Shown one piece after another: positions 1 through 23,200 of a DNA stretch of 64,000 nt. A model generated the notes under the pieces. It was not told where the DNA came from and made no database searches. It saw only the letters and a program-made list of their open reading frames with translations. The translations under genes were made by a program, and so were the position numbers. Within the stretch, counting starts at the first letter, position 1, and every line of letters starts with the position of its first letter. Source of the stretch: Gracilaria domingensis (taxonomy: Eukaryota > Rhodophyta > Florideophyceae > Gracilariales > Gracilariaceae). The stretch lies in assembly GCA_022539475.1 (NCBI GenBank), contig VCMS01000219.1, positions 1 to 64,000 of the forward strand. The letters are read 5' to 3'.

Positions 1-1335
1 AAAACTAAGGGATTTGTTAAAAGAGTTCCTGTCCGATTTGAACAAGGTTGTCTTAAACGGATTTCTGTACAAAATGTCCGCTACTACCAAGTGGGAACTG
101 CTGGAAAGCTTTCGAAGGAAACTTCGGACACGGTTTCCATCTCGTTTTGATGCTTTCTCCGATGAGTATTTGGCTACTCTTCGTACCGCTGTGGTCCAGC
201 TGAACCTAAGACCTTCCCAGCAGCTATCCCGGGCTACTCTGTCATGGCGTCAGGAAGGAAGCAACACGGTCACGTTGAAGATTGAGGATACAGTTACGGC
301 ACAGAGAACTATTTCCTCCAGGCCAAGGGCTAGGGCGGTGGGTAAAACATCCGGTAAAATATCCGCTGCAGACCCAGGTCCGGTGGATGTCACTGGCATA
401 AACGACAGGGATGATGAAGACGATGGAGCGCACCCCCTTTCTAATGTTCTTGGTGGTATTCTTCCACCTCACGACTTTGGCGATGTAAGGACGACGAAGG
501 CTCTCGGTGTGGTCAAAAAGAACATGGAGCAACAGTTCTCTATGCATTTCGTTGGTGATGAAGAGTTAGTGGAGGCTCATGGTACACTGCTCCCTTCCGA
601 TAATTTCCTAGAGGGCAATGTTCAACTCGTACTCACGGACCCACCTTATGGTATACATGACAGTGAGCATGATGAGCTTCTCGACGAAGATATGGTTAAT
701 AATACAAAATGATGGCCTCAATGCTTCGCCCTGGCGGTCATTTTATAATTTTCTGTACTATCGAACAGTTCGCGGACTGGGAGGAGATTCTACGTTAGCA
801 CAAATCGGAGAATGCAGTGGGGAGGCAAAGTGCTTCGTTCTTAGTCGACCCCACACCGAAGCAATTCATTCGCTCTCGTACGCACAATTTGAAGAACCCC
901 GGAAGGAACACAACACGGTTGTTCTCTGCAACCGAGTATGCCGTGCACGCAGTCCGGAATGGAAACGCGTACGAGGAGCAGAAGGTGATGGTGAAGTACA
1001 AAAATCTCAACTACGTTCTCACGCAGTACCCCGGGCATTACTCTGTTATCGATCAGGTTCCGCATCTGGAGGCTGGTGAAGGACTCCGTTGGAAGGTAAA
1101 GAAGCGTTCCAAAATACACTCGGTTCAGGTTCGCCCCGAACAGAAACCGAGGGCACTGCTAAAGGAACTCATTGCCAGGTTCTCAAATCCCGGGGACGTT
1201 GTGGTTGATCCCTATAGTGGAACATTTTCCGGTGCCTTGGCTTGCATGGACATGGAAGAGCCCCGACGCTGTATTGGATGTGAGAGTGATGATCAGTGCT
1301 TCGCTCATGCTGAACACAATGCTGTAGTGATGTAG
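1..1335 (+). pseudogene. Decayed beta-class DNA amino-methyltransferase (5' end outside window)
   Basis: Reading is open from the first bases of the window, so the gene begins further left. The first ~200 residues are a non-conserved, partly acidic leader. A DPPYG motif follows at about 640-655 (motif IV of DNA N6-adenine/N4-cytosine methyltransferases). Next is an MTase-like core strand (LRPGGHFIIFC, about 720-755), a middle region, and VVDPYSGTFSGALAC at about 1200-1245, the AdoMet-binding motif I. Motif IV before motif I is the permuted beta-class order, common in bacterial restriction-modification and phage enzymes. The family transfers a methyl group from AdoMet to the exocyclic amino group of A or C. 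The reading is broken in a few places, so I call a pseudogene. It runs in the same frame into the SET-like region after 1335. Base specificity cannot be read from the sequence. Confidence 0.62.
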
Positions 1336-2172
1336 GCGAGGAAGGTTTGGGGTAACGAGTTCAACGCAAGAATAATTGTCAGTAATGAGGTCGTTCAAGC
1401 CTCGTATTTAGTACAGACAAAGTTCCCGGAAGGGAAGCAAATAATCTCGCGTATATGGATCGCTCCGAAAGGATTCCCGCCATACGCAACGTTTTGCAGA
1501 GAACCGAATCTCATCCGGCAGCACAAGGAGAAACCAGTGCACGAGTGGCCTCTGAATCTCCAATGCACATTGGAGACGATGGATGTACAGACTTTGCTCG
1601 CAGCTGAAGCAGCAGATTTATGGTTGTACAGGAAGAAATCAAACATCAAACACCCCTTAAGTGGAGATGAAGTGTTCAGTAGTAGATCGTTCTCGGAAGA
1701 AGAGGTTGTCGGGTACTTCTATGGGACATTGGTATATCATGACATAAGCCGATGCAATGCAAAACAGATGAAATACGGAAGCGGAGTGCTCGGTGCCACC
1801 GTTTCTCGTTTCAGGAGGTGTTGCATGGAAGTGAAGCTGAAAGGGCAGATGTACAGCACGCTTCCTCACTATGACTCCGAAATCAATACTGCGATTGCGT
1901 GGGTAGTACCCGCTCCTTTCTTTATAGCGGGCTAAATCAATGATGCTTCGTACCGGGATGGGGACGAAGAGAAGGATTTGGCCGAGATAGAACCCTACCA
2001 AGGCCGCTTACCAAACGCTATTATTGGACAGCCCTCCAAGTATCAAGCTACCACATTGTGTACACTGGCAAGCTATAGCCTACTGTTGGTGACGGCTACA
2101 AGGGGTATTCATGAACACGACGAACTGTACGTAGACTATGGACCCAGCTATTTATGGAAGAGGTATTTGTAA
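1336..2172 (+). pseudogene. Decayed SET-domain region fused downstream of the methyltransferase
   Basis: This stretch continues the frame of the preceding methyltransferase, with little spacing. The conserved end is at about 2100-2160: GIHEHDELYVDYG, matching the C-terminal ELxxDYG signature of SET domains, preceded by a segment (about 2000-2060) resembling the N-x-x-I strand before the pseudoknot. An earlier YFYGTLVYHD stretch (about 1710-1745) fits the first SET strands. SET enzymes methylate protein lysines, usually on histones. The reading is interrupted, so the product is probably not made. The likely ancestral product was one polypeptide with a DNA-methyltransferase half and a protein-methyltransferase half, or two adjacent ORFs. 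The SET call rests on the C-terminal motif and is moderate. Confidence 0.5.
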
Positions 2173-2721: not shown

Positions 2722-5213
2722 ATGGCTCCACAAAAGTCCAGCAACGCGGACGACCGGGGGACGAAGGGATCCCAAACAATCCCGCGATATGGTATTGGCG
2801 TCGCTAAGCGGAAGACACCTCCGCCTGCCGCGACCCGAAGAAGTACTCGACGACGAGCTCCCCGTGTCGGGCTTACTGGAAAAAGTCTGGTTCGAAGTCA
2901 GCACTCCGGGCTTTGAAGGCAAAACCGAAACCGAAGCTGGGTGTTACTACGACCACAACGGAAGTGACGGAGAACGAAGTAGTATTACCACATCACAGCT
3001 CAGTGGGGGGGCGAGTTACACGACACATGGCTGCAGAGGAAGTGCCAAGAATAATCTATGATGTGAATGTGGAAGAGAATATTGCCGAGAGACGTACGAG
3101 AGCGAAAGAAAGACGGACAAGAAATTTGAGAAACAATGTCATCGAAGAAGAGTTTCACAGAAATGAAAGAGCCATCTCACCTGGTAGGACGAGGCGCATT
3201 ACAAACGATTCAATTCAACCCCTACGTAGTGGGGACGAAGAAGGAGCCGATGATATACAGCCCACTGTACGTGCGCTTGCAACATCGCGAAGGGAGATCA
3301 AAAGTCGGAACGATCCCCTTCATGCCGATCGTGCTAGTGACGAGGTAGAAGTCGATAATATAAAGTCCTCTGTACCTGCGCCCGCACCGTCGAGAAAGAG
3401 TTTCAGCAATGGAAACGATTCCATTCATCCCGAACGTCGTACAAACGAGGAAGAAATCGACGAGATACAGCCTGCTTCTCGTACGGTCGTACCATCGCAG
3501 AATAGGTTAAACCAAATGAGAAGGAAGGGTTCGACCTCGATTTCCTTTGGCGAGATGCGTAGGGAACGGACAGAGGTGGGGTCAGAATTACCAAGAGAGA
3601 CATGGAACGAAACGGGTCGTAATGCGGCAGGTCGCCGGAAAATTAACCGTACGTTTCCATCTCGTGCTCTTGCTGTTGTAGACGAAGAAGGTAAAGAAGA
3701 TGAAAACCTAACGCCAGGGTACGAGCTGTTGGACAAGATTGGAGACTTGAAAGCGGATCTCTTTCGAGTAACCGAGGATAATCAAAGTCTGAATATGAGC
3801 GTAAGAATAGCACAGAAAAGCGTGACGGAAGTAGGGCAAAAGGAGAAGGAGCAAGATGTTCTAGTACAATCACTTCGAGAGGCACTGAAGCGAGGAGCAA
3901 CACGGAGGGAGAGTGAATCGCACAGGGGAAGAAAAAGATACGAGATTGATGTGAACGACGCGTATGTAGGGGTAGCGAAGACAGTATACGTGTCCATACT
4001 GCGCTACGCGAAAGACGAGACAAGGGAATTGTGCTTCGAGATGAGTTCACCGGCGAGAAACTGGGGGAATCGAAGTGAGACACTCGGATCTGAGACTGAG
4101 TACAGTGTGCTGGTCGTTGATGGGAAAGAGATTGTTCCACGCTGTCCAATGGAGGTCGCGATGGAGATTAGAGCGTATACTCCATCGATTCGTGGTACGG
4201 GTCAAAACTTGCGGATGCAAATCGTGGAGACGGAGGTAATGAAACCTCGTTGGGAATCCATCCGGGAGATGAAGATGGAAGAAGACTGCATTAGACAGCT
4301 GACCAACAACATGTGCTTACGGAAGAGGTTGAAGCAGGCCTTGAGCGATGCGGTGGGGGTTCGAAAACGCCATGCGAAGGAGAAGTTTTTGATGGGGCTA
4401 GGGTATGAAATGTTGGTGAAGACACCATCTCATGAGAGGGAGAGGAGCATATACCTAAAACAAGCGGAGGAACTACGGGAGAAGCTTCTGCCGCTAGATG
4501 CAAAAGGGTGTGAGATTCTCTCCACATGGAGAACATCCAAAAGAGAGGACATATCATTTTCCGGGTTCAAAATGCGTAGCGAAGAGAACAAGCCGCAAGA
4601 CTTGCTGTTTAGAAACGTTCTAAGCCTACAGGTCTTACGGGAGTTTATGGGTTACGATGTGAACCAAAAGGATTCGAGAAATGCGGGTGACAAGGACCCA
4701 GTGGATGGAAAAATAGTGCAGTTGGCGCGTCTAGATGCTTGGATCGCGTCAGTTGTTCGAGCTACAGAGTTTGAAGGAGGGCGGGGGGTAAAAGGCAGGT
4801 GTTTTTCTCCAACCTTTTCGGAAAGTATACTGATGGCTGTATGAATGAAAATGGAGCAGAAGTTTGGAACGTAGTTCAGGAACGACTCAATGGCTCAAGA
4901 TCCACGCCATGGAAATGATGACCGTCTGAGAACTGTGGCATACTGGATACCGTCTAAGAAGAAGCTATATCTAGCTGTTCGAGAAGATGTATTTATGGAA
5001 GAGATTACGGAACATCTTGGAGCCGTAATGGATTGCTATATTGGGTATTGTGACCCACGGGATCGCGTATACTCCCCTATAAGAGCAATCGATGAAATCC
5101 GAGATAATAATGTGATCGATTGTAATCCGAATGTCTGGGGACAAGGTAGGGAACGAGACGGGGGAGGTGTGGACGATGAGCACGAGATGGAAGACGAGGA
5201 AGAGAATATCTAA
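2722..5213 (+). CDS. Basic coiled-coil-prone accessory ORF of the Plavaka-like element
   Basis: An ATG at 2722 opens a Ser/Pro/Arg-rich basic leader that ends at 2916. The main frame is open from about 2913 to 4844 (about 640 codons), and the same frame reopens from 4890 to 5213. The three pieces probably belong to one gene split by a frame change near 2913 and either a stop or a short intron near 4787-4880; a GTAAAA and a CAG lie there, but no joining restored a clean frame. The main part is rich in Arg and Glu (MRREKx-like runs), with a predicted coiled coil roughly at residues 270-330 and a more globular C-terminal half. The 4890-5213 piece ends in an acidic tail. I recognise no family. 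By position it could be the DNA-binding partner (TnpA-like) of the transposase, but nothing in the sequence proves it. Confidence 0.45.
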
Positions 5214-5316: not shown

Positions 5317-8300
5317 CTAGTGAAAGGGAGGGGAAAATGGTCGGGCAGGGTAGTTTTGGCGAATGACGTGTATGGAGCCTTTGATTGAGGAGAACGGGAT
5401 AAGCCCGAACCAAGGAGAGACCGTAGCAGAACGAGGTTTCATCGTTGACGTTCTTGGATGCACGGTGTGATCATGCTCGTCGTCGGTGGCCCAACGGAGT
5501 GATATACAGTTCAGAGTTTCATCAACGTTATTCAAGGGCTCTGTCACTTCGAAGAAACGAACGAGAGCGAGCTCCGATTCAGAGTTGTCTAAGGTCTTGT
5601 CCCTGACGCGAAGCAATGCAAATACTTTGCATACGCACGCTGTGGAAAACATACAGTTGGGAGGGAGTGTTCCGTGCACGAGAACCGTGGAGAACGTAGG
5701 CAACTTGGAAGGCCCGAAGGAGTTCGTAGCGAAGATGCGTTCACATAGTTGTAAATCGGGCCTTCTCAGTCTTATGCACCGAAGATCCCGATCGCAATCA
5801 TCGAGAGAGGGGCAGAAGCCGCTAAGAACGTATGCAGAATTAACGACAGTGAGTTTGATCTCGTGAGGGTTCTTCAGCTGTTGAATAGTTTCTACACAAA
5901 GGTTGCGAAAGGAGGTGAGAGCGTCGCGAGATATTTGGTTGATGAACTGCAGTGTGGTTGTCGAGAAACGTTCTTCCAGAGCCGAAGAAGATACATGTGG
6001 ATGCGATCGTAGGTACTTGTCAGCTGTGATGATGTCAAAGAGTGAGAAGGAGTTACCCTGGCGAACCATGGCTGGAAAGCGGTTGATGGAAGGGCTTTGA
6101 GAGTTGGAGGAGACAGAGAAGTGACTTCTGACCGAAAGGGATTGCAAATAGTCCTGCGACTATTGAATGGCGTTCACCGTTTCCTTATGAGCTGTAGTTC
6201 GCCTTCGAGAAGTTCGACGATAGTGGTTCTTGAAGAGAAGATGAGCATGTTCGTACACGCCTGCATCGCCAAAGTGCAGGCCTGCGTATCGCCGTATGTC
6301 TGGAATGATGTGGTCAAGGAAGTGAAACTTAAGAGTACGAAAGTTGGAGGCTTGGTGCCGGCCGAGAATGGAGACTGTGTGAAACTTGAAGTTCTTTATC
6401 ATAGTTTCCAATGCATCTATGCGATGCTCCGTCCATTCTGGAGTGGTATTGTAGCGAAGAACGTTGTTGACGAGGTCAACGTAGGATGTGAACACGGTGG
6501 TAATACGGGCGCAGGATTCCTCACCACAACAGCGGTTAAAGAAAGAGCCAATGAAAGGGAAGACCATATCAAGGGAACGGTAGTCCTTGGCTTCCAACAT
6601 ACCCGTGATGCCGTCTGTCGTGAAGAAACCGTTGAGAGAATTTCCTTTTTCGGATGTGGAGAAGTCGATGTGAAGTCCGGATGCCGGATAGGAGCTCTCA
6701 ATATCGGCGAAAATGGCGTTGGCGTGGCTTAGAATAGAAGTTCGAACGGTCTGGAAAGACCTCGGGTTTCCCTGAGAACCCACAGAAGTGTGAAGCGAAT
6801 CGGACTTGAGGCGTTCAATCGAGGCGAGTTTGATGAGTTTGGAGATTCCGAGATGAAAGTTATGAAAGGGCTCGAAGGAGAAGATTGAGTAAGGAGTGAG
6901 CAGCTCGGAGACATTGAGCATAGGGAATGATTCGAGAAAGGACTTGTAAGTGGATAAGGAGGTAGTTTGGAGTAGTTCAACAGCTTCATTTTTCAGGGTC
7001 TTTGCCACTCGAGGTCTGCGGGTGAGCAAAGCCTGTTCAGCGCCGGAAAGTAGATCTTGGTGTTTCTTTCTCGTTGCAGAGGTGTGGGATACAGTTCGCT
7101 CATTGAGTATGGGTTTATAGATGTTGAGTTGCGAACGAAGGATGAGGCATCTATGGCAGGGCTTGTTTGGCTTTGTGCCATGGAGGACAGCGAGAATGTC
7201 CTTTGCTTCGAGAATGTCAGCGCTATAGTTAGCGATGATGGGATGGCACTGACGAAGGACTCCCTTGGCGTCTCTAAAGAAGAAGCCTTTTTTGCATATG
7301 TCGTACAGAGGTTTGAGGATAGTTTCCAAGGACTTCTGGACGAGCTCCATGCGCACAACGCGAGTTATGTTCGACGACAAAGGGCCAATTTCCAAATACT
7401 CGGTGTCGGTGAACGAAGAATCGGGAGAGAAGGATGTGAAGGAAGTGGGAATGTAGCCGACGAGAGTGTGGTGGTGTGTGATACATTTTCTGCGGAAAGA
7501 GTCCTTGAAGTTGAGAAACGTAATATGGAGGGGATATGGTATGACAGAGGAGCTTTTTAGCGTGGTGGAGGACATATCGGAATAGAGTTGAAGCAGGCCG
7601 ATGAAGGAGTCTGTACCAGTAGTGGTGGGATCATGCCAGATGACTCTTGGGTTTGGAGAACGTGCGATGTGCTTTTTCGGAGCGGGAACGACGTCATGTC
7701 CGAGTTTGGAGGCCATGGGATGCGCAAACTGCGTCGGTTCCTGTGCAGGAGGCGTGGTGAATTGGGTGAAAGAAGTCTTTCTCATGGGATATTAGCCGAA
7801 GTTGTTGTTGAAGGACTTGAATGGGGTCCTTAACATAGAGAGTGGCAGAGAACTGACGGTCGTTATCGTGAATGGTGGTGGAGGTGAAGCCGATGGAGCT
7901 CACTGTCTCTTCAAAGATTTTGGAGTGTAGTTTGAGACACTCAGAAGCGGAGGTGATGGAGGTTTGGAAAATAGAGGGGGGAAAGTTGGACTGCCTGAGA
8001 ATGTTGATAAGCTCGTCTGCGGAGCGCTTTCCGAGTTTCGTGGCAATGGAGGAAATGTATGTGATGAGATTATGAATGTTGTCTCTTGAAGCGGGCGGGG
8101 AGAGGGCATGAACGGAACCTACGGAGAGGGACTGAGAATTGAATGGCGGTTGTGGTGTATCTAGATGTGCTGCGTCGAAAGAACGTATGGAGAGAGCGAG
8201 CTGCTGTTCTTCATACGGTTCGTCAGTGGCGAGTGCTACATTATCGGAGGGTCGGTTGGAGGGAGAAGAGAGAGGGGGTTTGGTACTGCTGAGTCAGCGA

Positions 8301-8541
8301 CGTTTTCTTCGGGGGGGGAAGAGGGAATCGCGGGGGCAGGAGGAGTGAGAAAAGGGTTTGGGTCATGCCGGTGTCTGCATCGTTTCTGATGTTGCGCGAG
8401 GGAGGCGATAGAGTCTGTGTGAAAGGCGCAGCGGGGAAAAAACATATGTACATGATGCAGTAGGGCGGGGAGGGGGGAGGGGGAGGCGGTTGCTTGGAAC
8501 GTTGGAGGTGAGGAGCGGAGGTCTAAGGTGCAGTGTTGCAA
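5317..8541 (-). pseudogene. Plavaka-type transposase with an in-frame amber codon
   Basis: Read on the minus strand. A C2H2-like finger (C-x..LAQHQKRCRHR) lies near 8450-8400. A conserved N-terminal block follows, reaching VKDPIQVLQQQLRLIS near 7830-7790 in a different frame from the core. The long core is 7785-6160 (541 codons). Within it, GYIPTSF and then KGVLRQCHPIIANY...CHRC are the hallmark block of fungal Plavaka transposases (CMC superfamily DDE enzymes). The core ends at a TAG at 6158-6160 and the same frame continues to 5317 with the family's C-terminal region (VCKVFALLRV..LVRFFEV, SSIKGSIHVIR). One amber codon and at least one frame change or intron near 7790 therefore separate it from a whole gene. 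The enzyme would cut and join transposon ends in the nucleus. The Plavaka call is from motif memory and is fairly firm. Confidence 0.72.
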
Positions 8542-8599
8542 CTTGTGGGAAATTGTTGCCGTACCGTGTGGGGGAGAATATAGGGAGAGTCAATCGGCG

Positions 8600-8836
8600 C
8601 CATGCACGTGATGGTTTACGTACATCACGATATGATATGGGTACGTCGAGGAGGGAAGAAATTGTGAAAAACTGAAAACATTCCTAAGTTTTGAGCCCAT
8701 ACTTTGCGGCCGGCGGGAACTATACACTAGACGTAGATAGTGCTGCACTGGAGAAGTCAGAAAAGTGCCATGGCACGGGCCTGACCACTGCGATGCGAAC
8801 TCTGATCATGGCACTTCTCTGGGACACATTATCTTC
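8600..8836. other. Non-coding; short inverted repeat AAGTGCCATG
   Basis: AAGTGCCATG at about 8763 is followed by its reverse complement CATGGCACTT at about 8807, and the first copy overlaps the 12-bp palindrome GTGCCATGGCAC. No ORF of note. This could be the subterminal region of the Plavaka-like element. Confidence 0.35.
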
Positions 8837-9113
8837 CAGATCATGCAAGTTCCATACAGGTACGTGAAATACGTAACGGTTTCGACTCTTACTGCTACCT
8901 TATTTGTTGCCGACCTAGTTCGATGCGAGCGATGTAGGAATAACGAGCGAAAGACTAGTATGCAGATCATGCGAGTGACGTACTGGTACGGTTGACACTC
9001 TATCTACGGTTGTCATGGGATCTAGTTCTTGCTGACCCCGTTTGACGCGAGCGATGTACGGAGAGCTCTAGTTCTTGATGACCCCGTTTGACGCTAGCGA
9101 TGTACGGAGAGCG
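8837..9113. repeat. Degenerate 126-bp direct repeat with an internal 46-bp tandem duplication
   Basis: CAGATCATGC followed by a similar tail starts at 8837 and again at 8963, a period of 126. In the second unit a 46-bp block beginning CTAGTTCTTG at 9022 is duplicated at 9068 with few changes (GACCCCGTTTGACGC then AGCGATGTACGGAGAGC). Divergence between the 126-bp units is clear; the 46-bp copies are nearly identical, so the second duplication is younger. Confidence 0.6.
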
Positions 9114-9155
9114 AGCAAAGGTTCTAGGAACGCATGTGCACGCTCGTGAGGTGCG

Positions 9156-9239
9156 TCGCTAATTACGCTCTAAGAAGCGATTCGAGTGAGAAATGTACTA
9201 CAATTCTCACTGGAGACGCTTGTAGAACTTAATTAGCGA
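9156..9239. other. 84-nt imperfect hairpin, pre-miRNA-like
   Basis: TCGCTAATTA at 9156 pairs with TAATTAGCGA at 9230-9239. Further paired blocks lie inside: AAGCG with CGCTT, and GTGAGAA with TTCTCAC. The stem is about 36-40 bp with a few mismatches and a loop of about 9 nt near 9196. No coding frame overlaps it convincingly. It could be a small-RNA precursor, a foldback transposon remnant or a transposon end. Only the inverted repeat itself is directly seen. Confidence 0.5.
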
Positions 9240-9376
9240 GGTTCTAATGACTAACAGTTGGGTTTGGTTTTAGTTCTGGCTTAGTGAACTTTGGGTCGTT
9301 TATTGAATTGGATTGGAAACTGTGGCACAGGGGGGGCGTTGAGGGTAGATGGTGGAGCAGTAGACCATGAAGCTGT

Positions 9377-9990
9377 CGCATTATCAGGACTGGAAGACAT
9401 GGAGAGGTATGTAACAATATCTTGACGAGGAGAGTTTTACCTCTGTTGTATATGTACCAACTGTGTGTTCAATTACTGCTTGCAGATTTTCGATCCATGT
9501 TGAATAGGAACGGGAACGTTCACTTTCCTATTCAACATGGGTCAAAAGTCTAGAAAACATGGATCGTGGAGCAATGGAGGGTGAATGTGTCGCATTAGCG
9601 GACTGGAAGACATGGAGAGGTATGTAACACGAATGAATCGAGAAGAAGTTCGTGTTTGTTATCTGATTGCTAACTGTGTGTCTCCTTGCTGCTTCTTGCG
9701 GGGTCTTGATTCTTGAATGGGAACGTGAAGGTGTGTTTGGCGACGAGAACTGGAGGATTTGAAAAGGTAGGGAGATATCGCAATGAAAGGGTTGTGTGTA
9801 CGCTATGGATACTAACTGTGTTTCAGATTGTGTTTCTGTGCGGTGCCGCGATGAAAGTGTGTGGACGGTGATTGGGACTGAAAGAGATAGAGAGGTAAGA
9901 GGTTCAGGTATCAAAGAGACGTTTCATGGTTGTTCAGAGTATGGCTACTAACTTCGTGTCCATTTTCGGCTTTCTGTGATTATGCAATTG
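9377..9990 (+). repeat. Array of four diverged intron-like modules
   Basis: A module with an exon-like end GGAGAG, then GTATGTAAC, then about 50 nt, then CTAACTGTG and a pyrimidine tract recurs at about 9388-9484 and 9600-9700. More diverged versions lie at 9750-9826 (GTAGGG..ACTAACTGTGTTTCAG) and 9872-9990 (GTAAGA..ACTAACTTC). The first two share 38 of about 40 bases around the 5' end. Modules one and three have a complete 3' AG (9484, 9826); in modules two and four the AG at the expected place is missing. The layout matches spliceosomal introns with yeast-like branch points. The intervening exon-like pieces encode no clear protein. This may be a duplicated, decaying non-coding host gene or simply a tandem repeat that contains an intron. 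Confidence 0.5.
9495..9540. repeat. 46-nt hairpin with 16-bp perfect stem
   Basis: CCATGTTGAATAGGAA (9495-9510) and its exact reverse complement (9525-9540) enclose a 14-nt loop. The outer bases GATCCATGTT are answered again by AACATGGATC near 9557, giving an alternative pairing. It sits in the exon-like piece between the first two intron-like modules. Confidence 0.6.
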
Positions 9991-10907
9991 AGGTATGTGG
10001 ACTGTGCGAAGGAAGATGTTACATGCAACAGCCGATGAAGAAGTTTTGAAGATGAGTTCTGGTTTTGATCATTGTGTTTTGAGGATATGTGGTCGCGGTG
10101 GTGTGCTCAGGGGGTACTGCAGCATATGAATGTTCCAGCCGTAGTATTCTCGGAGGCTGACTGCGTTCGGTCCAGACTGGTCCTTTCTCTGGGCTTCCTA
10201 TGTGGTCCGTTAGTGGACCACCCGAATGGGCCCACTCACCTAGAGCACTAGCAAAAGTGGAGGACTGGAAGTACAGTTCTGCCATCTTTCATACTTGCTA
10301 GTTTTAGATGTCTAGTATCAAGAACATAGCATACTTTAGCATACCTCAGAATCATTCATTAGTCGTAGTTTTCTCTAGTTTTTCCTCCGAATGGAAACTA
10401 CAGAAAGGGCAATTTAACATATGAAAAACTAGCATTTCGAAACTAGCATTTTTGGACTGCTAACTAGCAAAACGAGAACACAGACGGACCCAGAAGCTTT
10501 CACAAGGGGAACGCATCCCCTCTACCCTTGCGGATGGAAGTTAAGATACCGGGATTCAAATCGCCCTTGTTCTCTTGAACATCTTTTTCCCTCTTTTTAC
10601 TACCCATTCGAAACCAATTGAAAGAACTGAAACGTTCATGGAGTTAACCAACAACCGGAAAGGGTGTGCCACTCCCACGAACTACATAGAAGCACTGAAA
10701 CATCGAAATCACGATACTCGGAAGTGAAAATCTTTTAATTAGATTGCCTTTGTAGAAACATTATGGTATTCGGGAGCGCGTTTGGTCCATAAGTAGAACA
10801 AATCGTGATGATCGTCTTTCCGAATATAGCTCTACCAAGCATATGCCTTCTTATCCTGGCAAGTCTCAGGGTCCTTTAATTTTAGTTGAACAACCTCTAG
10901 TTCCGCA
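9991..10907. other. Non-coding stretch
   Basis: No supported gene. Short repeats of AACTAGCATTT lie near 10430-10455, and a 7-bp stem GTGGTCC/GGACCAC near 10200. Otherwise nothing recognised. Confidence 0.4.
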
Positions 10908-11249
10908 ATGGAACGTCATGGATACGTCCCAGGCCTTCAAGGTGGTGAAACGAGAGTGGGATTCAATCCACTTCGTCAAATCTGGGGCTACGACCCTCAT
11001 GTTTTTTCTAAACTGAGATATCATATTCTCGCATCCTTTGACAAATTGGATGTAGTGCAACGCTCATCTATGAGGATTTTTGCTGGACTTAGTCATAATT
11101 CCCGTTCACGGGATTGCCTGGTACACCAGTATAAGACTAGTAATAACTATTGGTTGCCATCGAGATGGTTCGGACACGTGGGACACGGTGGAACTGATGG
11201 GAGGTTGACCAGTACATTTGGGCGTTTGCAACAAAAGTGGGTGTTATAG
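10908..11249 (+). CDS. Unidentified ORF, 113 codons
   Basis: ATG-started ORF ending at 11249. Composition is protein-like (Trp and His spread along it, GYDPHVFSKLRYHILASF near the middle), but I recognise no domain. It lies alone among repeats. It may be a piece of an older mobile element or a chance ORF; the minus strand holds a shorter competing frame. Confidence 0.2.
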   Translation: MERHGYVPGLQGGETRVGFNPLRQIWGYDPHVFSKLRYHILASFDKLDVVQRSSMRIFAGLSHNSRSRDCLVHQYKTSNNYWLPSRWFGHVGHGGTDGRLTSTFGRLQQKWVL

Positions 11250-12655
11250 TTAAATATTATTTATTAATTGTAGGGAGCGCACTACTTGGCGCGCAGTCGT
11301 CTCCGACGTCGCGCCCAGTAAAGTTCCCCAACCAGAGTGATCCTACTTCAGTGTCTCGGCTCTAGCCTTTCTCGCCTTCGGCGCTGTATAACTCCGTATA
11401 GGAGTTACTCCCGGTTGCAACGGTTCTGCTATCCACCCTGCGTCACCCAACGAACCCAATCGTGAGAGTGTTAAACGCTTTTGTTCCGTTTCGACCCTGT
11501 ACAGAGAACCCCCGGCTGTACGCCGTACATTTTTGCACCTTTTTCCTGAGACCACTTCACTCGCTTGGGTGCCTCTTGCCTTTCCACTTTCTACCATCTC
11601 CGTGGTACCGACCCCCTTAGGACGTGCACTCCACACACGTGGTTTGCTTTCTCTGCTCAACACTCTACGCTCCGTCGTGACAGTTTGGCCCAGGTCTTAC
11701 ACCCGGCTAGTCGTGCAATTCCGGAGAGGCTGTGTTCGATGGGTGCTCTTCGAAGAGGAAGATCCCGAACGTCTTCATGGTGTGGTTCCCGCTGGTAGGC
11801 ATTTCACTTCAGTAGAAAACTGTTATACAGAGCACAACGAAGGAATCCGGATGCTTGTATGGAAATGAGAGGCCGTGAATCGTATCAAAACGCTGGAGAA
11901 ACAAAAGAAGATGGTAGGTGGGGTGCGTTCTGGTGCACAAGGAATCAATGTGTTTGTTACACACGGGTTTGTCCACGCATCACATTTGACAGGCACTCAT
12001 CACGTTCGAAACGAGGTTGTGGATCGTCATGCGCGAACGCGCACTTCTGGTACTGTTTCTACTGTGCAAAACAATTCTGTCCATTAACAGGACATTTGTT
12101 CCGCAGATACGCCATCTACCAGCAGCACTATTGCAACTCTTAAGTTTATTCTAAGTTTGTCGCCCACACTGGAGGAGGTTGTGAGATTATGGCGATTTGG
12201 GGATGAGAAGATGGGTTTTAATCAAGTGCAGATTTTCTCAAGCTGTCTTTACGACAAACAATAGTGAAGAGCTACACAGATAAACATTAGAATGGCAGCG
12301 GTCGAATAGCAGCTTTCCATAGGTTCAAGGATATTGCAGAGTTTGTTTCTGAGCATGGACCGCTTTCCCTACAGATAAGTACGAGAGGAAAGGATGCGGA
12401 CTGAAAGTATGGCATATGCAACGTGGAAAGATTCATGTTATTCTCAAAGCTTAGATTAACGAGGAGTGCTTCGCTTCGAATTGTTCGCGTAGAACATAAG
12501 AAGCGAGAAACTTGAGGATTGCCTGACAATCCTTTCTGGGAAAACCGCTTCAATTTGAAGCTCTGTGCAAAACTCGTAAACGAGCGGGACACCCGTCCTA
12601 CAATAGACACCGGACGTTGTATTTTCGTACCGCTCTTGTCGTACACTGGTCAGAG
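11250..12655. other. Non-coding or decayed stretch before the satellite
   Basis: Several overlapping ORFs of about 100 codons on both strands (for example around 11343-11663 and 11533-11868) show no recognisable motif and compete with each other. I see no convincing gene. Confidence 0.35.
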
Positions 12656-13211
12656 CACAAGCTGGGCGAACTAGCTCCTACGAGCACGAGTGCTCTGAAC
12701 AAAGTGGCAGAGAAGCAAAAGTGCTATGCGAGCCACCAATTTGCCTCTCTTCCAAAAAACCCAGAGAGCCATTATCAGATTGCTGAACGGGCCAGGCAGT
12801 CTGGCATTGCGCACACCCATTCCAAAGCACAAGCTGGACGAGCTAGCGCGTGACCTGAACCAATTGGCAGAGAGGTAAAAGTGCTGGGCCAGCCAACTCC
12901 TTTGACTCTCTGCCGCAATCTCTGCCAGCCATCGTCAAATTTCCGGACGAGCCAGTCAGTCTGGCGATAGCTCACACGAATCTAAGAGCCGAGCTGGGCC
13001 AACCAGCTGTTGCCCTGAACCAAGTGGCACAGAAGCAAGAGTGCTGGGCGAGCCAGCACTATTGCGTCTCTCCAAAAAACACTGCGGGCCATGGTGAGGT
13101 TCCCAGACGAGCCCGGCAGTCTGACTACGGCACACACTAATCCCAGAACACGAGCTGGGCGAGCCAACCCGTGCCCGGAACCAAGTAGCAAATGCGCTAG
13201 ATGCTGGGTTA
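12656..13211. repeat. Satellite-like tandem repeat, 160-173 bp unit, about 3.4 copies
   Basis: A landmark CACAAGCTGGGCGA or close variant starts units at 12656, 12828, 12988 and 13149 (periods 172, 160, 161). Each unit carries CTGAACCAAGTGGCAGAG, then GTGCTGGGCGAGCCA, then a GCAGTCTG segment in the same order. Units differ by many substitutions and small indels, so the array is old. The last copy is truncated at about 13211. No ORF is shared between units, which argues against a repeat protein. Confidence 0.75.
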
Positions 13212-14705
13212 CCCTGTACTTTAAAACCTCCGTCACTACCTTCACATGCTATTCATAGACTGCCCATCTATGGACATGAGGGGATAACATTTTTACCATT
13301 TTGTCAATCACGCAGCTGTGGTTTGCCATATTGAATAGAATTGTTACCCACGCATAGTTGGACATCTGAGAGCTGAAGAGTTCAAGATAGTGACCTTGTG
13401 GGAAGCAGAACCTTTGAAAGAGCACTGCGCGCATCTGATTTCAGAAAGCAACCATTTGTCGCAATGAACGCTAGCGCTGGTTCTAGTACGCCGCGTTTGA
13501 GTCATCCAAGATGTTTTGCGATATGTATTGAGGATCTGGAAGGTTTCGTGGAGGTAACGAACTGTTCCCACGTGTTTCAGAGCTCCTGGTTCTCTGATTA
13601 CACCAGCGTTAACGAAGAAACATATCTCGTCTTCCAGATTATTCTCATTCCTCAGAAGAAAGTCAAATTCTTGAAATCGCTGAGCATCAGCGTTTGAACG
13701 CTAAAAAGCAAAGTGCCAAATGTCCGAGCTGTAGAAAGGCTTCAAAACGGAGGAGTTTACGTTTTACGTTGATCACGAAAACAACGACAAGAAAACGGAT
13801 ACCGATGGGAAATCAGAAGTGGAGAAAAAGAAAATTGTGAAGCAAGATAAGAAGCGTTTAGAGGCAAGGCAACGACAGAGAGCCAAACAGATTTCCCTGA
13901 GACGAGCTCCTACAGGTGAAGAATCGGCAACGGAATTTGGCGGTGATGGTCGATTATAAAACCACAAGGGCTTCACCAGCTAACTCCAGAAAACCAAACG
14001 CGAGAATCAACTCTGCGTGAGCGGATACATCACGATTGAGCAGCACGCGTCAGAATGAGCCATCTACTGCGAAATTCATTAGTGCGCGGAGTTTGCAGCA
14101 GGCGAGGCGTTGCGAATATCTCACTTTGTGTTGCATTTTCAAAGGTTCAAATCGAGTAAAAAATGTTTGCAGTAGAATCAAAAGAGAAATACGGGTCTCG
14201 AAAGGGTTTAGGCGCTGTTCACGCGCAGTCGGGAGAGTTAACAAGAGAAACAATTATTGATTTCTTTCCATAACAAAATTCATCAAAGGACCGTGTACCT
14301 GGCAGTAGCCGTCGTATCCGGTGCAGGCGTACATTGGCAATAGCCTCTAATGTTAGCGGAAATCCACGTTCACACATCGTTTTATCGCACGCGTGTATTA
14401 CAACTGCTTATCATGGCGCACTCGTTCTGGAAGCACCAATTCAGTATGCTCTTCACGTTCCACCTCAGTCTAGCGGCTCGCTCGCCTAGTGTTCGAGCAC
14501 ACCAGTTTTAAACTCTCCGTCGATACCTGTGTCGCATGCTGCAGGACAACATAATATACAAACCAAAAGAACCCAGCGTTCCGCTCACACGAAAGGGCCG
14601 CTCTCTATCCGATGTCGTTACAACTGTACAGAAATTATACACGTGCCCTGGCGCGTACTATGATTTGCGACTTCGAACGTCCAATATATCTCTCATCTTG
14701 TTACC
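13212..14705. other. Non-coding stretch left of the Harbinger-like element
   Basis: A 99-codon ORF at 13398-13697 and a few shorter ones show no recognisable features. The stretch probably holds the left end of the Harbinger-like element and the promoter of its accessory ORF; ends were not identified. Confidence 0.35.
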
Positions 14706-16032
14706 ATGAACAGCGAAGATGAGATGGAGGCTTCTGACTTCCGCGAACAAAACAATGTCTCTCAATACGACGAGTTAGCTAGAGAATCTACCGAAATTAC
14801 ATCCACACCTACTTCAGAGAAGCGCAAGAACTCCAAAACGTCCCGATTTCAAACACTGTGTTTCCCTACTGTAGAAGAAGAACTTGATTTCGTCTGGGAC
14901 TTGGTACTTTCTCGGAGTGGACAGAAAATGAGCACCCGACTGAAAAGGATAAGGAAACCAACCAGCGGAAACAAAGAGGTCTTGCGCTCACGACTAATGC
15001 TTCATGTCCTTAGCAAACTAGCGCAAAATAAAATGCCATACTCTCCCATGCAGAGTCTTGACAGCAATAATGTGAGGGCTCATTTCAAGGTTAAGAGGGG
15101 GTTGAAATGTATCCATCATCCAAAGACCGAGAAGCTTTTGGGCGCGTTAACGAAAGCAGAGCAAAGCCTTTTCAGGAAAGAGTTCGCATCTTCAGATGCT
15201 GATGAAGTGGTGCCGGTAAGTGTCGGAGAGACGATAACTCCAACACCAAGAAAAACGTCTACGCTTGAGAAGAAATCGAAGTATACTCCGGATTTCAATG
15301 AAAACGAATTTGCGAGACTCCTGCTATTGGTACGAGATGACGAGAAAACAAAAAGACATATATATTCACTGTATTCACAGTCTTTTACATTGACTAGGGC
15401 CCAGCAGAACTCTGGGATTTGTCAGGAGCATTTGTGGGAGCGTATCGCTTTTCGTTTCAACAGTGTAGATTTTTCGCCAATTGAGGACTTCCCTCCTCCA
15501 GTCGAAGATGTAATACCAAGTTTATTTTCTTTAAAAGATCGCAGTCACGAAAAATTTGCAGAGGTTTGGAGGCAGAATAAGGCTTGTTGGACCAGAACTA
15601 TTTCAAATTATGATGTTTCTGAAAACAATGGTGAAATTCCGTTCATTGATTTCTGTCACAAGAACCAACGACAAAGGCCCTTTCTGGAGTAGGAAGGCGG
15701 GTTTTTTCAAGTACTGTGTCTTTTGCTTGGATTATGAAGATATTGATAAAACTATTGGCCGGTTCTTTTCTCGGCAGCTCCCTGAAAATGCTAGTTGTAG
15801 TCTGGGGATCAACAAAGAATTGAATTCCTTTGGTGGAAAGCGACGCAGACACTCAAGTCGTGGAGAGCCTTCAAGTGCTTCAAAGCGAGCGAAATCTGCT
15901 CGCGGTAGCAGTAACGGAGTATTGGAGGATGCCATAACTGGATTGCAGACGTCAATGAATATGTTTGCATCGTGCCAAAGAGAGAAGGTAGACATGCAAA
16001 AGGAGGACCGTGAAGAGACTAGAAGATGCTGA
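14706..16032 (+). pseudogene. Transposon accessory ORF (SANT/trihelix-like), frame broken once
   Basis: ATG at 14706 opens 328 codons ending at 15692. The neighbouring frame takes over at about 15660 and runs to 16032, so one frame break near 15665-15690 splits one protein of about 440 residues. Order: acidic N-terminus, a basic stretch (KSKYTPDFN), then NENEFARLLLLVRDDEKTK and ICQEHLWERIAFRFN, FAEVWRQNKACWTR and, in the second frame, GPFWSRKAGFFKYCVFCL. The tail is Lys/Arg-rich (GKRRRHSSRG), like a nuclear signal. The W..IA..FN..F and S..W..SG...F..FC..K spacing resembles transposon-linked ORFs I remember from oomycetes and red algae. It probably binds DNA and escorts the transposase of the element whose other gene is at 20.3-19.2 kb. 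Partnership is inference. Confidence 0.5.
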
Positions 16033-19171: not shown

Positions 19172-20288
19172 TCATTCATTAGATTCTGTTCGAATCTTAT
19201 CGATTTCTTCCTCTTCATACATATACTCCGGTATTCCCTCGCAGTTGATACAAAAGTTGTGAAGAATCATACCTGACGCAATGATTGAGAGGCAATCTTC
19301 GACTCTATAATTTAGTTCAGCATTGTAGAAAACTCTCCACCTGCGCTTCAGAATGCCGAAGGCCTGCTCAACATGGATACGCATTAATGATAAAAAGAAA
19401 TTAGTTGCACTCCGGAACTCGGTCAGACTTTTCCCCGAGTATGGAGATACCAAAGAGTTAGACAGCAATCAAGCTTTATCCCGTACGAGGAAATATCCCA
19501 ACAGAAGTTTTCCAGCCCGTAGAAAGCGGCATGAGGCAGACATTTCGAGAGCCAAGGAATCATTTGTAGAACCGACTGCCAGAGCAAAAAGTCGAGAAAG
19601 CGATACTTGAAGTCTACAACAGCTTGAACCGGTATGAAAAAAATGCTTTCCTGCAGAAAAAGCTCGCTACGTTCTCAAATGCTCGCGGTTTCCGAATACG
19701 CATACATATTCCATCCAACGCCCCAACACATCCAGAGAATGGATTCGCGTATTTCCTCGAAGTCTTGAACCCTAGACTGAGTTTTTCCTACTCTGCCCGT
19801 TCTCTAGGAAGGCCGGAAAGTGTCATAGTTTCCTGGACTGCGGACTTGAAGTTCTTAAAACACTTGTGAAAACTACTTTTGGTAACTTTGTAGGCCAGCA
19901 TCAGATCATACACACTCGCTCCTGCCATGACCCGAAGACCAATCGATATTTTTACCTTTGCTTGTATAGATCGCGTATCTAGAGGTAATCGCTCGGAAGT
20001 ATACGAACTCTTTAGAAGCGTGTGATGTAGCTTATTGAAAGAGTTAACGTTCATTCGAAAGGCACCGTAAAAATCTTTCTCTGAATAGCATTCTGTTAGT
20101 TCTTCAAAGGTACGTTTTTGCACTGGGTAATTAGTGCGTGTTTTTCGTTGCTTGTTTTTCTTATGCCAGTATGCGACGAGGACGATAAGGAACACTACTT
20201 GGTGGAGAAAGTACACAATTTCTTCGTCCTCGTCTAATTCATTATGATGATCTTGAACAATGGCGTGAGAAACGTTGATATCATCCAT
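19172..20288 (-). pseudogene. PIF/Harbinger (HARBI1-like) transposase, decayed
   Basis: Read on the minus strand from an ATG at 20288. The N-terminal block (20288-19788) has FRMNVNSFNKLH and SIGLRVMAGASVYDLMLAYKVTKSSFHKCF, the helix-turn-helix-like start of HARBI1 nucleases. Around 19740-19690 a different frame holds GCVGALDGICMRIRKP, whose Asp is the first DDE acid, so a frame change lies near 19770. VVDFKYRFLDF..GLENFCWDI, carrying the WPGS/H-D-S region in worn form, follows in further shifted frames (19620-19480). The last block, 19468-19172, has RIHVEQAFGILKRRWRVF and GMILHNFCIN, the C-terminal signature containing the final Glu. At least two frame changes make it non-functional. In HARBI1 relatives the protein cuts at 3-bp target sites with a SANT-type partner. 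Confidence 0.78.
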
Positions 20289-23200
20289 AGTAAAGGGGAT
20301 CGTGATGGAAAAAAGTATGAAAGCCGGTGTTATGATTTCTGCAGTGTAGTATATGGCACCTCCTAACGGCTTCAATCTTGCCCGCCGATTATGCCAAGCA
20401 ATCCGTCTTGCCTTACTTACAGCGCGGAGTCATTTGCATGAGGGAAGTCTTCTCGAGTAGCCATGCGTATCTACGGAGGGGGGCTGCGTAGTAGCCCGAA
20501 GATGTGTAACACTTGTTCACCTCTTGTTGTAACGACAATAATTCACTTGGCATACGTTTTCTGCTGCACACACTCTTATCTAGGAAATTGGAGGTTCAAA
20601 ATTTCAATCTACCTTGTGTGCGCGTCCTGCGCACCGCGTGAATGAACACCAATTTTCTAAATTAACCCGTGCACACCCCGTACATACCCTCGGACAAAAC
20701 ATGATTTCCTTACGGCCCCTGAATCAACACCTCAGAGAAGGCGAGTATCGAATGTCATATGAAGAGTTGAAGAAGCTGAAGGAGCAACTCAATGAACGTT
20801 TGGAACAAGGTCTTATTCACTCTAGCTCAAGCCCTTGGGGTGCACTTGTTATATTCGCGGACAAGAAGCACGGAAGCCTAAGACTTTGCATCGATTACCA
20901 AGCCCTCAATAAGTTGAAGATCAAAGATAGTGACCATATTCCAAGCATTGATGATATTTTTGAAAAATTCCGTGGCACGAAGGGTATTTTCAAAAATTCG
21001 ATTTAGAACGGGTTTATCACTAAAATCGACTCTCTGATTACCTTTATTCCACTGACAGCTTTTAGACCTAGATACGATCATTTTGCGTTTGTCGCCTTAA
21101 CGTTCGGTGCCACCATCACACTAACAAGTTTCATGAGCTTAATGAACAAAATACTGTAAGAGAACTTTGGATACATTCGTCTTGGTGTATCTCGACGACA
21201 TTCTTATTCACAGCAAAACTGTAGAGGAGCATACGCAACTTATTCGAAAAATATTCGACAAACTTCATGCACAAAAGCTTATAGGGAGCTTTCAAAGTGT
21301 GAATTTCTAAAGAAGAAGGTTGAATACCTCGAGCATGTGGTTACTACCGAAGGAATATCAGTAGAAAAAAAAGTGAGATCCATCAAAAATTGGACAACAT
21401 CGACGAATAGAACCGATGTTCCAGCTTTCTTCAGACATGTAAATTACTACCGACGATTTATTGAGAACTACTCCAAAATATCAAAAACAATAACCGCTCT
21501 GTGTTGAAAAAACCCATTCAACTGGGGAGGGAACAAAGAAAAGGCCTGCCCAGAAGCTGAAAGAGAAGGCTTCTTTCGTTTCAGACTTTCTGGAAACGTC
21601 CGAAATGATATCGATTCGGAGATTATTCAACTTCCAATTAGTAAATCTCCGAAACAAACGGATATAGTTCGTATCAAATACAATCGCGAAGCTCGAGCCT
21701 TTGGAACGACTTCTTCCATGTTTTCGTGCCACTCGTGCACCTCGCGACTCTAGTGCAACATAGCCAGAGACGCGAGATCCGAGGCGTTGTTGCGACCTCT
21801 CGCATGTTTTCGTGCCAACAGCACAAGCTGTACGTCATTTCAGCGCTGCTTGCGCTCATTGCTTGGGGCTCGTCGAACCCAGAGAGGCCGCTCCTTCGGC
21901 GCCTTAAATTCAAATGCCAAAAACGTCTCTCTCTCCACGTTCCACCCCGCAGCAATCTGGCTCGTGTAGTGGACGGTGCGCTCGGTAGTATTTAGTGTGA
22001 AGAAGAGCGGCCACTGCAAGAGTAGTCTTAGATACCTAACGCTATAGAATACGAATGCGCAAGACTGCGGCTACGGTGGGGAATCATCAACGATAACAGT
22101 AGCGATCATGGCCATGTTGTTACACGCTCAATGGTTTTGCGAGGCGACGGCGGCGCTTGCCCTGAGAACGTACGTCCCAGAAAGTTATAATCACCACCGC
22201 GGGTGAGGGGAAGCTGGATTATCGTGGCACGAGAGCGGTTTGTTCGAATCAAGTGTGGGTCAGCACTGAGAGAGGGTCATAGGCACGAGCTGTGGAAATA
22301 ATGGTGTTTCAATTGGTAGTAGCAACAAACGGCGCTTGTTCGCCGTTGATTTGGAGCTCACCAACAATGTTGTTATTCTCATTTCGTTTTTAATTATGAA
22401 ACCAACGCATTTTCTTCAAGCATGAAAGTGATGTGACTATTGTGCCCTCTGCCAACTACCGCATTTGCCAAACTACCCGCCGCTCTCGTTCCGTTACAAA
22501 TTTGTCTTTCGTTAGCACACATTGCTTCGCTTACCTCCGTTTTGTCGCTTTTGAGCAGCTCCTGGCACTGACCAGCTACCAAGAAAACGTGCTGCCATCG
22601 ACGCGGTGGTGCACTAAGTTAACATGGCTCTGGGTACTTCTCTTTTCGCATCGCAATGCCACAAAAACCGCAAGCTGCTAGGCAACACTGACGATGGCTA
22701 CTTCGCCGCCAGAATTTGACCTACCCATGGCGTGTTTTTGTACCGGAACTATATGCTAAGCTTCAGGCACCGGGTATTTGCGCGAGACATCAACATGAGC
22801 TCTGAGAAATTTAGTGTTAATGGGAGACATTTTATATATGAGGAAAAGAAGTTGGCCAAGATGAGTTTATTACTGAGAGGCAAGATGGACCGAAACTCTC
22901 AATGCAAAAGACGCCGGAGAGGGTGCTGCTTCGCTTGCAAAATTCCTTCTAGCAAAATATCAGTCAGATTTTGACGATACTCGGCGTTTTTTCAGTTAGT
23001 TATCGAGAAATCGGACTCGGCACTGGAGGTCTTCAGGAAGACAGAGGCCTGAACTCCAGCAAAGCGATGAAGATTAGGGAAGTTCGAACGAAAATGTTTT
23101 CAGGATTTCTCAAATTGTGAAGGGCCCTGAGCGGAAGTAGGCAGAATAGAAATAATTTCCAAACTTGCACTATCGTAGTTGCGAACAGAACGCGGAAAAA

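What the first reader, a model, noticed from the sequence alone, without database searches (positions are those of the whole stretch)
1..2172. DNA amino-methyltransferase joined to a SET domain in one reading frame
A beta-class bacterial-type DNA methyltransferase (DPPYG, then DPYSGTFSGALAC) runs in the same frame straight into a SET-like domain (ELYVDYG). A protein able to write both a DNA mark and a histone mark would be a new kind of chromatin writer. A bacterial-type amino-methyltransferase recruited into transposon control is known in bdelloid rotifers (N4CMT, with a chromodomain), so capture by a eukaryote is plausible. Here it lies among transposons and is decayed, which also fits carriage by a mobile element. 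Intact relatives may exist elsewhere in the genome.
Basis: partly seen in the sequence, partly recalled or inferred. Interest (0 to 1): 0.75.

Follow-up and report, generated by a model that had tools for sequence, protein, structure and literature searches.

The report
Transposon gene fusing two methyl-writing enzymes
The broken gene in this window is a dead copy of a gene that is intact elsewhere in the same genome, where a jumping DNA element carries a bacterial-type DNA-methylating enzyme joined to a histone-methylating (SET) type of domain in one protein; whether both halves work is untested.

Summary
The fusion is real, but the window copy is dead. Window 2-2169 aligns at 83-85% identity with an intact 1121-aa relative, with one frame change near 706 and three in-frame stops. 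DPPYG and DPYSGTFSGALAC are therefore in different frames here, and this copy's last piece is below Pfam's SET cut-off (12.6 vs 22.4 bits). In intact relatives both domains share one ORF and pass both cut-offs: N6_N4_Mtase 53.7-60.8 bits, SET 23.1-32.3 bits, in four lineages, the most distant 27% identical. Nine of 44 scored lineage-C copies span 1-1055 without a stop. The gene sits in a Plavaka-type DNA transposon of about 20 kb with terminal inverted repeats. Between lineages A and B both domains look constrained. No C5 DNA methyltransferase was detected in the genome. Best reading: an element-encoded chromatin writer that marks its own DNA and nucleosomes, perhaps against silencing. Activity is inferred: methylase motif I and the SET NHS motif are atypical. 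SET genes and DNA-base enzymes are each known in transposons; my searches found no report of this fusion.

The parts
2..709 (+). Decayed MTase-SET gene, part 1 (frame 2): conserved N-terminal region and catalytic motif IV (DPPYG, 638-652). The gene's start lies left of the window.
   Evidence: tblastn of intact P0002 residues 390-625, 83% identity; ORF 2-712
706..1332 (+). Decayed MTase-SET gene, part 2 (frame 1): rest of the methylase domain with SAM-binding motif I (DPYSGTFSGALAC, 1207-1245); stop at 796-798
   Evidence: Pfam N6_N4_Mtase 52.2 bits on 799-1332; PF01555 54.2 bits over 712-1311; tblastn with P0002
1333..1611 (+). Linker region after the methylase, with a stop at 1333-1335 and an 11-residue gap against P0002
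   Evidence: tblastn with P0002
1612..2160 (+). Decayed SET domain (stop at 1933-1935; ELYVDYG at 2122-2142). Bounds carried over from P0002 residues 936-1118.
   Evidence: tblastn with P0002; SET bounds in the alignment; SET above cut-off in intact relatives; 12.6 bits for 1936-2169 alone
2722..5177 (+). Gene B, function unknown (basic N-terminus, coiled-coil-like by eye), disrupted here
   Evidence: ORFs 2713-2916 and 2808-4844; tblastn of P0005 to 3723-5177, 32% identity; no Pfam family above its cut-off
5317..8176 (-). Plavaka transposase gene, convergent with gene B, disrupted (several frames)
   Evidence: Pfam Plavaka 67.7 bits on 6160-7788; tblastn of P0004 to 7767-6163 and 8176-7742; the 5317-6156 piece joined by comparison with the L043 ORF by eye, no Pfam hit of its own
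10471..10486 (+). Right terminal inverted repeat AACGAGAACACAGACG; right end of the element at about 10486
   Evidence: 29 aligned rows stop at 10486 or 10487; flanks differ beyond it; 99 genome matches vs 5 for the reversed control; oriented repeats around related copies

Best explanation
The window holds the right half of a dead copy of a large Plavaka-type DNA transposon. SHOWN (by sequence): intact copies encode one protein with an N-terminal region, a beta-class amino-methyltransferase domain, a linker and a C-terminal SET domain; the element also carries a convergent Plavaka transposase, gene B of unknown function and a divergent gene A. INFERRED: the protein acts on the element's own chromatin. 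The methylase half puts a methyl group on adenine (or N4 of cytosine) in the element's DNA, and the SET half methylates a lysine on histones of the same nucleosomes, so that the element keeps itself in a permissive state or hides from host silencing. Gene A (weakly ParB-like) could help target the protein to DNA; that is a guess.
For: Both domains above Pfam cut-offs in one ORF in four lineages. Nine of 44 scored copies run 1-1055 with no stop. Foldseek of the full model: M1.HpyAVI, CcrM, MboIIA and, lower, rotifer N4CMT; of the SET part: all 50 listed hits are SET lysine methyltransferases. SET-part profile matches EZH2 and SETD8 chains at E 1.5e-4 to 2e-4. Lineage A vs B: dN 0.158 (methylase) and 0.177 (SET) with dS saturated and 1.47. 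Transposase, ends and repeats. No PF00145 hit in the genome, control positive in 10 of 14 genomes. Precedent for transposon-encoded SET and TET/JBP genes read as anti-silencing (PMC12730594, passages).
Against: No activity, expression or methylation data. Methylase motif I departs from the solved enzymes, and lineage D has EPPY for DPPY. NHS reads NDA/NDAG in lineages A-C. Structure models are poor (mean pLDDT 47.6 and 49.6), with TM-scores of the SET hits by target only 0.28-0.52. Within lineages dN/dS is often near or above 1, as expected of decaying copies. Anti-silencing versus self-silencing cannot be told from sequence.
Confidence: 0.5

Rival explanations
1. Self-restraint or timing: the methylase marks the element's ends to regulate when it moves, and with SET it silences its own copies, limiting damage to the host.
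For: The same domain anatomy fits. Bacterial Dam methylation controls IS10/Tn10 movement (recalled). Rotifer N4CMT works on the silencing side (PMC8885841, passages).
Against: Copies are numerous, and lineage C copies are young: L047 is 97.7-99.96% identical to eight other loci over long stretches. That gives no sign of restraint, but it does not exclude it.
Confidence: 0.2
2. One or both enzyme domains are inactive and serve as binding or scaffold modules, for example reading methylated DNA or histones.
For: Motif I reads G-T-F-S instead of G-S-G-T/S in all four lineages, EPPY in lineage D, NHS reads NDA in A-C. Mutating the equivalent His inactivates EZH2 (recalled).
Against: DPP[YF] is kept in A-C and the tyrosine of the final SET motif in all lineages that reach it; both domains are conserved between lineages. 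PRDM9 is active without the His (recalled).
Confidence: 0.22
3. At least part of the family is a host gene family, or domesticated, rather than a transposon gene.
For: Lineage D has 1169-1170 aa ORFs at three places on contig C382; no transposase was sought or seen next to them.
Against: For lineages A-C: many copies, linked Plavaka transposase, gene B and A, decay after insertion; oriented terminal repeats for A.
Confidence: 0.05
4. Artefact: chance motif matches, misassembly or bacterial contamination.
For: The window piece alone is below the SET cut-off and out of frame. Some copies are identical across contigs (C219 and C489), so some counts may be doubled by redundant contigs.
Against: Four lineages with both domains in one ORF; eukaryotic genes in the same window (REV3, MIP channel); Plavaka absent from all 14 prokaryote controls.
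Confidence: 0.01

Closest known systems
Plavaka DNA transposons, some with a TET/JBP dioxygenase gene (fungi; PMC12730594, passages read)
   Same: Plavaka transposase above the Pfam cut-off; an extra gene for a chromatin or DNA-base enzyme; terminal inverted repeats
   Different: Here the extra gene is an amino-methyltransferase joined to SET, not TET/JBP; ends are CGTCTGTG..CACAGACG, whereas that paper gives TGT..ACA (PlavakaA) and CATCA..TGATG (PlavakaB); target-site duplications unsettled here
SET-bearing transposons HarbingerS and MuDR of Phytophthora (named in PMC12730594, passage; primary reports not held)
   Same: A SET lysine methyltransferase gene carried by a DNA transposon
   Different: Other transposase superfamilies; no DNA methylase fused to SET is mentioned in the passage that I saw
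Bdelloid rotifer N4CMT (PMC8885841, passages read)
   Same: PF01555 amino-methyltransferase of bacterial origin joined to a chromatin domain in a eukaryote; found among the Foldseek hits of the model (8s9m, E 1.1e-6)
   Different: N4CMT is a host gene with a chromodomain (histone reader) that acts on transposons; here it is a transposon gene with SET (histone writer)
Amoebidium 'Plavaka giant repeats' (PMC11244446, passages read)
   Same: Large multi-gene units flanked by a Plavaka transposase; their recombinases hit dinoflagellates and red algae, the paper says
   Different: Tyrosine recombinases are named there, no methylase-SET gene in the passages seen; the left 10 kb of our element was not read, so a recombinase is not excluded
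SETMAR (primates; search listing only)
   Same: SET domain tied to transposon sequence
   Different: SET fused to a mariner transposase in a host gene; no DNA methylase
Beta-class bacterial and phage methylases M1.HpyAVI, CcrM, MboIIA, phrog_67
   Same: Domain order (motif IV before motif I), fold and family profile
   Different: About 20% identity to the solved enzymes in Foldseek alignments, atypical motif I, fused to a long N-terminal region and SET

Membership tests
N6_N4_Mtase (PF01555), beta-class amino-methyltransferase | Profile score above the curated cut-off | tested here: met
   53.7-60.8 bits in P0001, P0002, P0003, L064; cut-off 26.7
N6_N4_Mtase (PF01555), beta-class amino-methyltransferase | Motif IV (DPPY/F) before motif I | tested here: met
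   DPPF/DPPY at P0001 521-524 and equivalents, motif I about 200 residues later; lineage D has EPPY
N6_N4_Mtase (PF01555), beta-class amino-methyltransferase | Canonical glycine-rich motif I (G-S-G-T/S) | tested here: not met
   G-T-F-S in the four lineages; solved M1.HpyAVI and MboIIA have G-S-G-S/T-like motifs in the same columns
SET domain (PF00856) | Profile score above the curated cut-off | tested here: met
   23.1-32.3 bits in four full-length relatives; not met by the window piece alone (12.6) or by P0009 (17.4); cut-off 22.4
SET domain (PF00856) | NHxxxPN and ELxxDYG motifs | tested here: inconclusive
   Final tyrosine motif kept (D/N-Y); NH reads ND in lineages A-C and NH in D
SET domain (PF00856) | SET fold | tested here: inconclusive
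   All 50 listed Foldseek hits are SET enzymes at E 3.8e-5 to 3.2e-4, but the model has mean pLDDT 49.6 and TM-scores by target 0.28-0.52
Plavaka DNA transposon | Plavaka transposase | tested here: met
   Window 67.7 bits, P0004 66.6, L046 69.6; cut-off 26.3
Plavaka DNA transposon | Terminal inverted repeats | tested here: met
   Oriented repeats: 9 left and 13 right among 48 chosen copies; flipped control 1 and 0
Plavaka DNA transposon | 2- or 3-bp target-site duplications | tested here: inconclusive
   Of 6 pairs of ends, 2 agree at 2 bp (C184, C21), 1 at 3 bp (C36), 3 do not; not all pairs are known to be one element
ParB-like protein (gene A) | ParB_N (PF02195) match | tested here: not met
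   No Pfam ParB hit; no PF02195 match in the genome, control positive in 11 of 14. Weak PHROG ParB-like hits for L055 only, best E 2.7e-4
Dual DNA and histone methyl writer | Methyl transfer to DNA and to histone lysine | not testable with these tools
   Needs enzyme assays and base-modification and ChIP data

The most novel reading that the evidence does not exclude
A single transposon-encoded polypeptide writes both a DNA amino-methyl mark and a histone lysine mark on the same chromatin, in a eukaryote with no detected cytosine-5 DNA methyltransferase: a self-contained mobile epigenetic writer that may be a main source of DNA methylation in this genome.
Probability: 0.3. Interest if true: 0.92.

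Novelty: new variant of a known kind. Interest (0 to 1): 0.76.

Why it matters
Transposons with a SET gene or with an enzyme that alters methylated bases are known, and rotifers joined a bacterial DNA methylase to a histone reader. A DNA methylase and a histone writer in one transposon protein, present in four lineages and conserved between the two that could be compared, would be a natural experiment in coupling DNA and histone marks. It makes directly testable how far a mobile element can set its own chromatin state, and whether bacterial-type 6mA or 4mC occurs in a eukaryote that appears to lack 5mC enzymes.

Tried and rejected
Chance or contamination: rejected. Viral origin of the whole protein: no relative in viral contigs for the whole-protein or the SET alignment; phage matches cover only the methylase, at 23.5-26.3% identity in the 15 of 98 records listed. 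Prokaryote collection: no relative by the same kind of scan. These three scans start from two short peptides each and would miss distant relatives. NCBIfam: three adenine/DNA-methylase models hit each of P0001, P0003 and L064, all far below their cut-offs; no hit for genes A and B. ParB identity of gene A: not established. Target-site duplications: inconclusive. MT-A70: no hit, but the control rang nowhere, so no conclusion. AlphaFold models: low confidence, used only for fold-level hits. YN00 failed for most comparisons, so NG86 was used. Not done: comparison of the element's SET with the genome's eight higher-scoring SET genes; other red algae (no collection here); the left 10 kb of the element.

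Literature: searches bear on the fusion and on the genome; their listings show no paper on a DNA-methylase-SET fusion in a transposon, but several listings were capped and subscription journals and Repbase reports are not held. PMC12695648 (6mA across eukaryotes): passages for my terms only, no mention of red algae or SET. A BioEssays review of eukaryotic adenine methylation (recalled) is not held.

Full report
OBSERVATION. The window is contig C219, 1-64000, of an unnamed 77.9-Mb, 680-contig assembly. At its left edge lie DPPYG (638-652, frame 2), DPYSGTFSGALAC (1207-1245, frame 1) and ELYVDYG (2122-2142, frame 1). 'In one reading frame' is only half right for this copy. Against an intact relative it shows one frame change near 706, stops at 796-798, 1333-1335 and 1933-1935, and an 11-residue gap, at 83-85% amino-acid identity. 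The second methylase piece passes Pfam (52.2 bits); the final piece is below the SET cut-off (12.6 vs 22.4 bits).

INTACT RELATIVES. Searching the same genome gave 150 matches with the methylase piece (150 of 476 candidates scored) and 152 with the next piece (150 of 442 scored), many inside long open frames. ORFs from three lineages, 1055, 1121 and 1118 residues (P0001 of lineage C, P0002 of A, P0003 of B), pass both N6_N4_Mtase (56.8, 53.7, 55.0 bits) and SET (32.3, 23.1, 28.2 bits). A partial 769-residue A copy, P0009, passes the methylase only. Lineage D (L064), 27% identical to P0001, passes both (60.8 and 30.7 bits). With P0001 as query, 44 of 1091 candidates were scored, and nine matches span 1-1055 with no stop. 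Genome-wide, 150 of 311 SET candidates were scored and all 150 exceed the cut-off: eight at 50-98 bits, which I take to be ordinary SET genes, and the rest at 30.7-38.0 bits, many at the places of this family; I did not check each one. For PF01555, 150 of 328 candidates were scored and all 150 exceed the cut-off. Some copies occur as identical pairs on different contigs (C219 and C489), so counts may be inflated by redundant contigs; scored counts are otherwise lower bounds.

FOLD. The models are weak (mean pLDDT 47.6 for the whole protein, 49.6 for the SET part). Foldseek still places the methylase with M1.HpyAVI (E 2.5e-9, TM by target 0.68-0.73 for its chains), CcrM and MboIIA, and lower with N4-cytosine enzymes PvuII and rotifer N4CMT. 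All 50 listed hits of the SET part are SET lysine methyltransferases, E 3.8e-5 to 3.2e-4, TM by target 0.28-0.52. A profile of the SET part gives 53 PDB sequences up to E 1, led by EZH2 (1.5e-4), SETD8 and KMT2A; for EZH2 the match is in two pieces on either side of an insert, and two weak hits near E 0.08 are not SET proteins. Motif IV is DPPY or DPPF in A-C and the closest solved relatives by sequence are mostly adenine enzymes, so 6mA is the likelier mark; but PMC8885841 says that this domain repeatedly evolved 6mA or 4mC specificity (passage).

SELECTION. Between lineages A and B, NG86 dN is 0.158 for the methylase (dS saturated), 0.177 for SET (dS 1.47, ratio 0.12) and 0.294 for the linker (dS saturated); the N-terminal part has ratio 0.15. 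Both halves were therefore kept while A and B parted. Within lineages the ratios run from about 0.5 to 1.7 in A and B by NG86, the pattern of copies decaying after insertion. In lineage C, methylase ratios are 0, 0.06 and 0.16 for three pairs with P0001 and 0.24 for L048-L053, on few changes. Comparisons with C and D are mostly saturated and say little.

ELEMENT. Downstream on the same strand lies gene B; convergent to it is a Plavaka transposase (window 67.7 bits, cut-off 26.3). All 123 scored of 672 Plavaka candidates exceed the cut-off. Upstream and divergent, outside the window, is gene A, with a faint ParB-like pattern: PHROG E 2.7e-4 at best for L055, nothing for P0006, Pfam ParB_N absent. 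In the search with window 7800-12500, 29 of 95 matched rows end at window 10486 or 10487, a few within six bases of it, others earlier (40 of 436 candidates scored); beyond it flanks differ. The terminal 16-mer occurs 99 times with up to one mismatch, against 5 for its reversed control. For 48 copies that I picked as lineage A from the 152 rows (the other rows dropped as other lineages, weaker matches or second pieces), 9 have a left repeat in the right orientation (8.8-12.7 kb away) and 13 a right repeat (12 at 8.1-9.4 kb, one at 15.0 kb); with orientation flipped the counts are 1 and 0. With that pattern no single copy shows both ends; C36 does if its right end (two mismatches) is counted, giving 22.5 kb. 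Target-site duplications are not settled: of six pairs, two agree at 2 bp and one at 3 bp.

SETTING. No cytosine-5 methyltransferase (PF00145) was detected, while the same search rang in 10 of 14 control genomes. The controls are prokaryotes and the search ignores introns, so this is suggestive, not proof. Its size is close to that given for Gracilaria domingensis (78 Mb; PMC10388701, passage); identity was not tested.

MECHANISM. Shown by sequence: the fusion, its carriage by a Plavaka element, its conservation between lineages A and B. Inferred: it marks DNA and histones of the element. Anti-silencing is favoured because transposon-encoded TET/JBP enzymes are read that way in fungi (PMC12730594, passages) and because lineage C looks recently active: L047 is 97.7-99.96% identical to eight other loci. 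Doubts: motif I reads G-T-F-S instead of G-S-G-T/S, lineage D has EPPY, and NHS reads ND in A-C. Mutation of the equivalent histidine inactivates EZH2, but PRDM9 is active without it (both recalled). I put about 0.95 on the architecture and its carriage, and 0.5 on the statement as a whole with its mechanism.

NOVELTY. SET genes in transposons and TET/JBP in Plavaka are known, and so is a bacterial methylase joined to a chromodomain in rotifers. The searches named in Tried and rejected found no DNA-methylase-SET fusion; the library is incomplete. I file it as a new variant of a known kind, with an unusual domain pairing.

Noticed in passing
G000 whole genome: No cytosine-5 DNA methyltransferase (PF00145) match in 77.9 Mb at E 0.01, with the control positive in 10 of 14 prokaryote genomes.
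   Followed up: partly
L064 2-3223 (C382:8701-12200) and two more places on C382: A divergent fourth lineage with 1169-1170 aa ORFs at three places on one 115-kb contig; methylase with EPPY and an acidic insert; no transposase sought next to it.
   Followed up: partly
L055 8976-9998; L054 114-2270: Divergent gene A with a conserved DG-HR pattern and weak ParB-like PHROG hits, next to a methylase gene.
   Followed up: partly
L051 1400-2330, L046 7700-8650, L053 680-1420: In lineage C, the stretch between gene A and the methylase gene is full of direct and inverted internal repeats.
   Followed up: no
window 9348-9904 and 8837-9112: Repeats and a near-perfect 34-base inverted repeat (9484-9551) between the transposase and the right end of the element.
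   Followed up: no
window 12651-13201: Three or more direct repeats spaced 160 bases, about 66-75% alike.
   Followed up: no
window 51226-56512: DNA polymerase zeta catalytic subunit (REV3_N, DNA_pol_B), split into two ORFs in different frames, by an intron or a frame change.
   Followed up: no
window 37220-39065 (-): Decayed retrotransposon pieces, Copia-like by eye; integrase core 25.9 bits, below the 32.6 cut-off.
   Followed up: no
window 14664-15692 (+) and 19788-20429 (-): ORFs that look Harbinger-like by eye; no Pfam hit at E 0.001.
   Followed up: no
C219 and C489, and other contig pairs: Identical copies on different contigs (both pieces 100% identical), which suggests redundant contigs in the assembly.
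   Followed up: no
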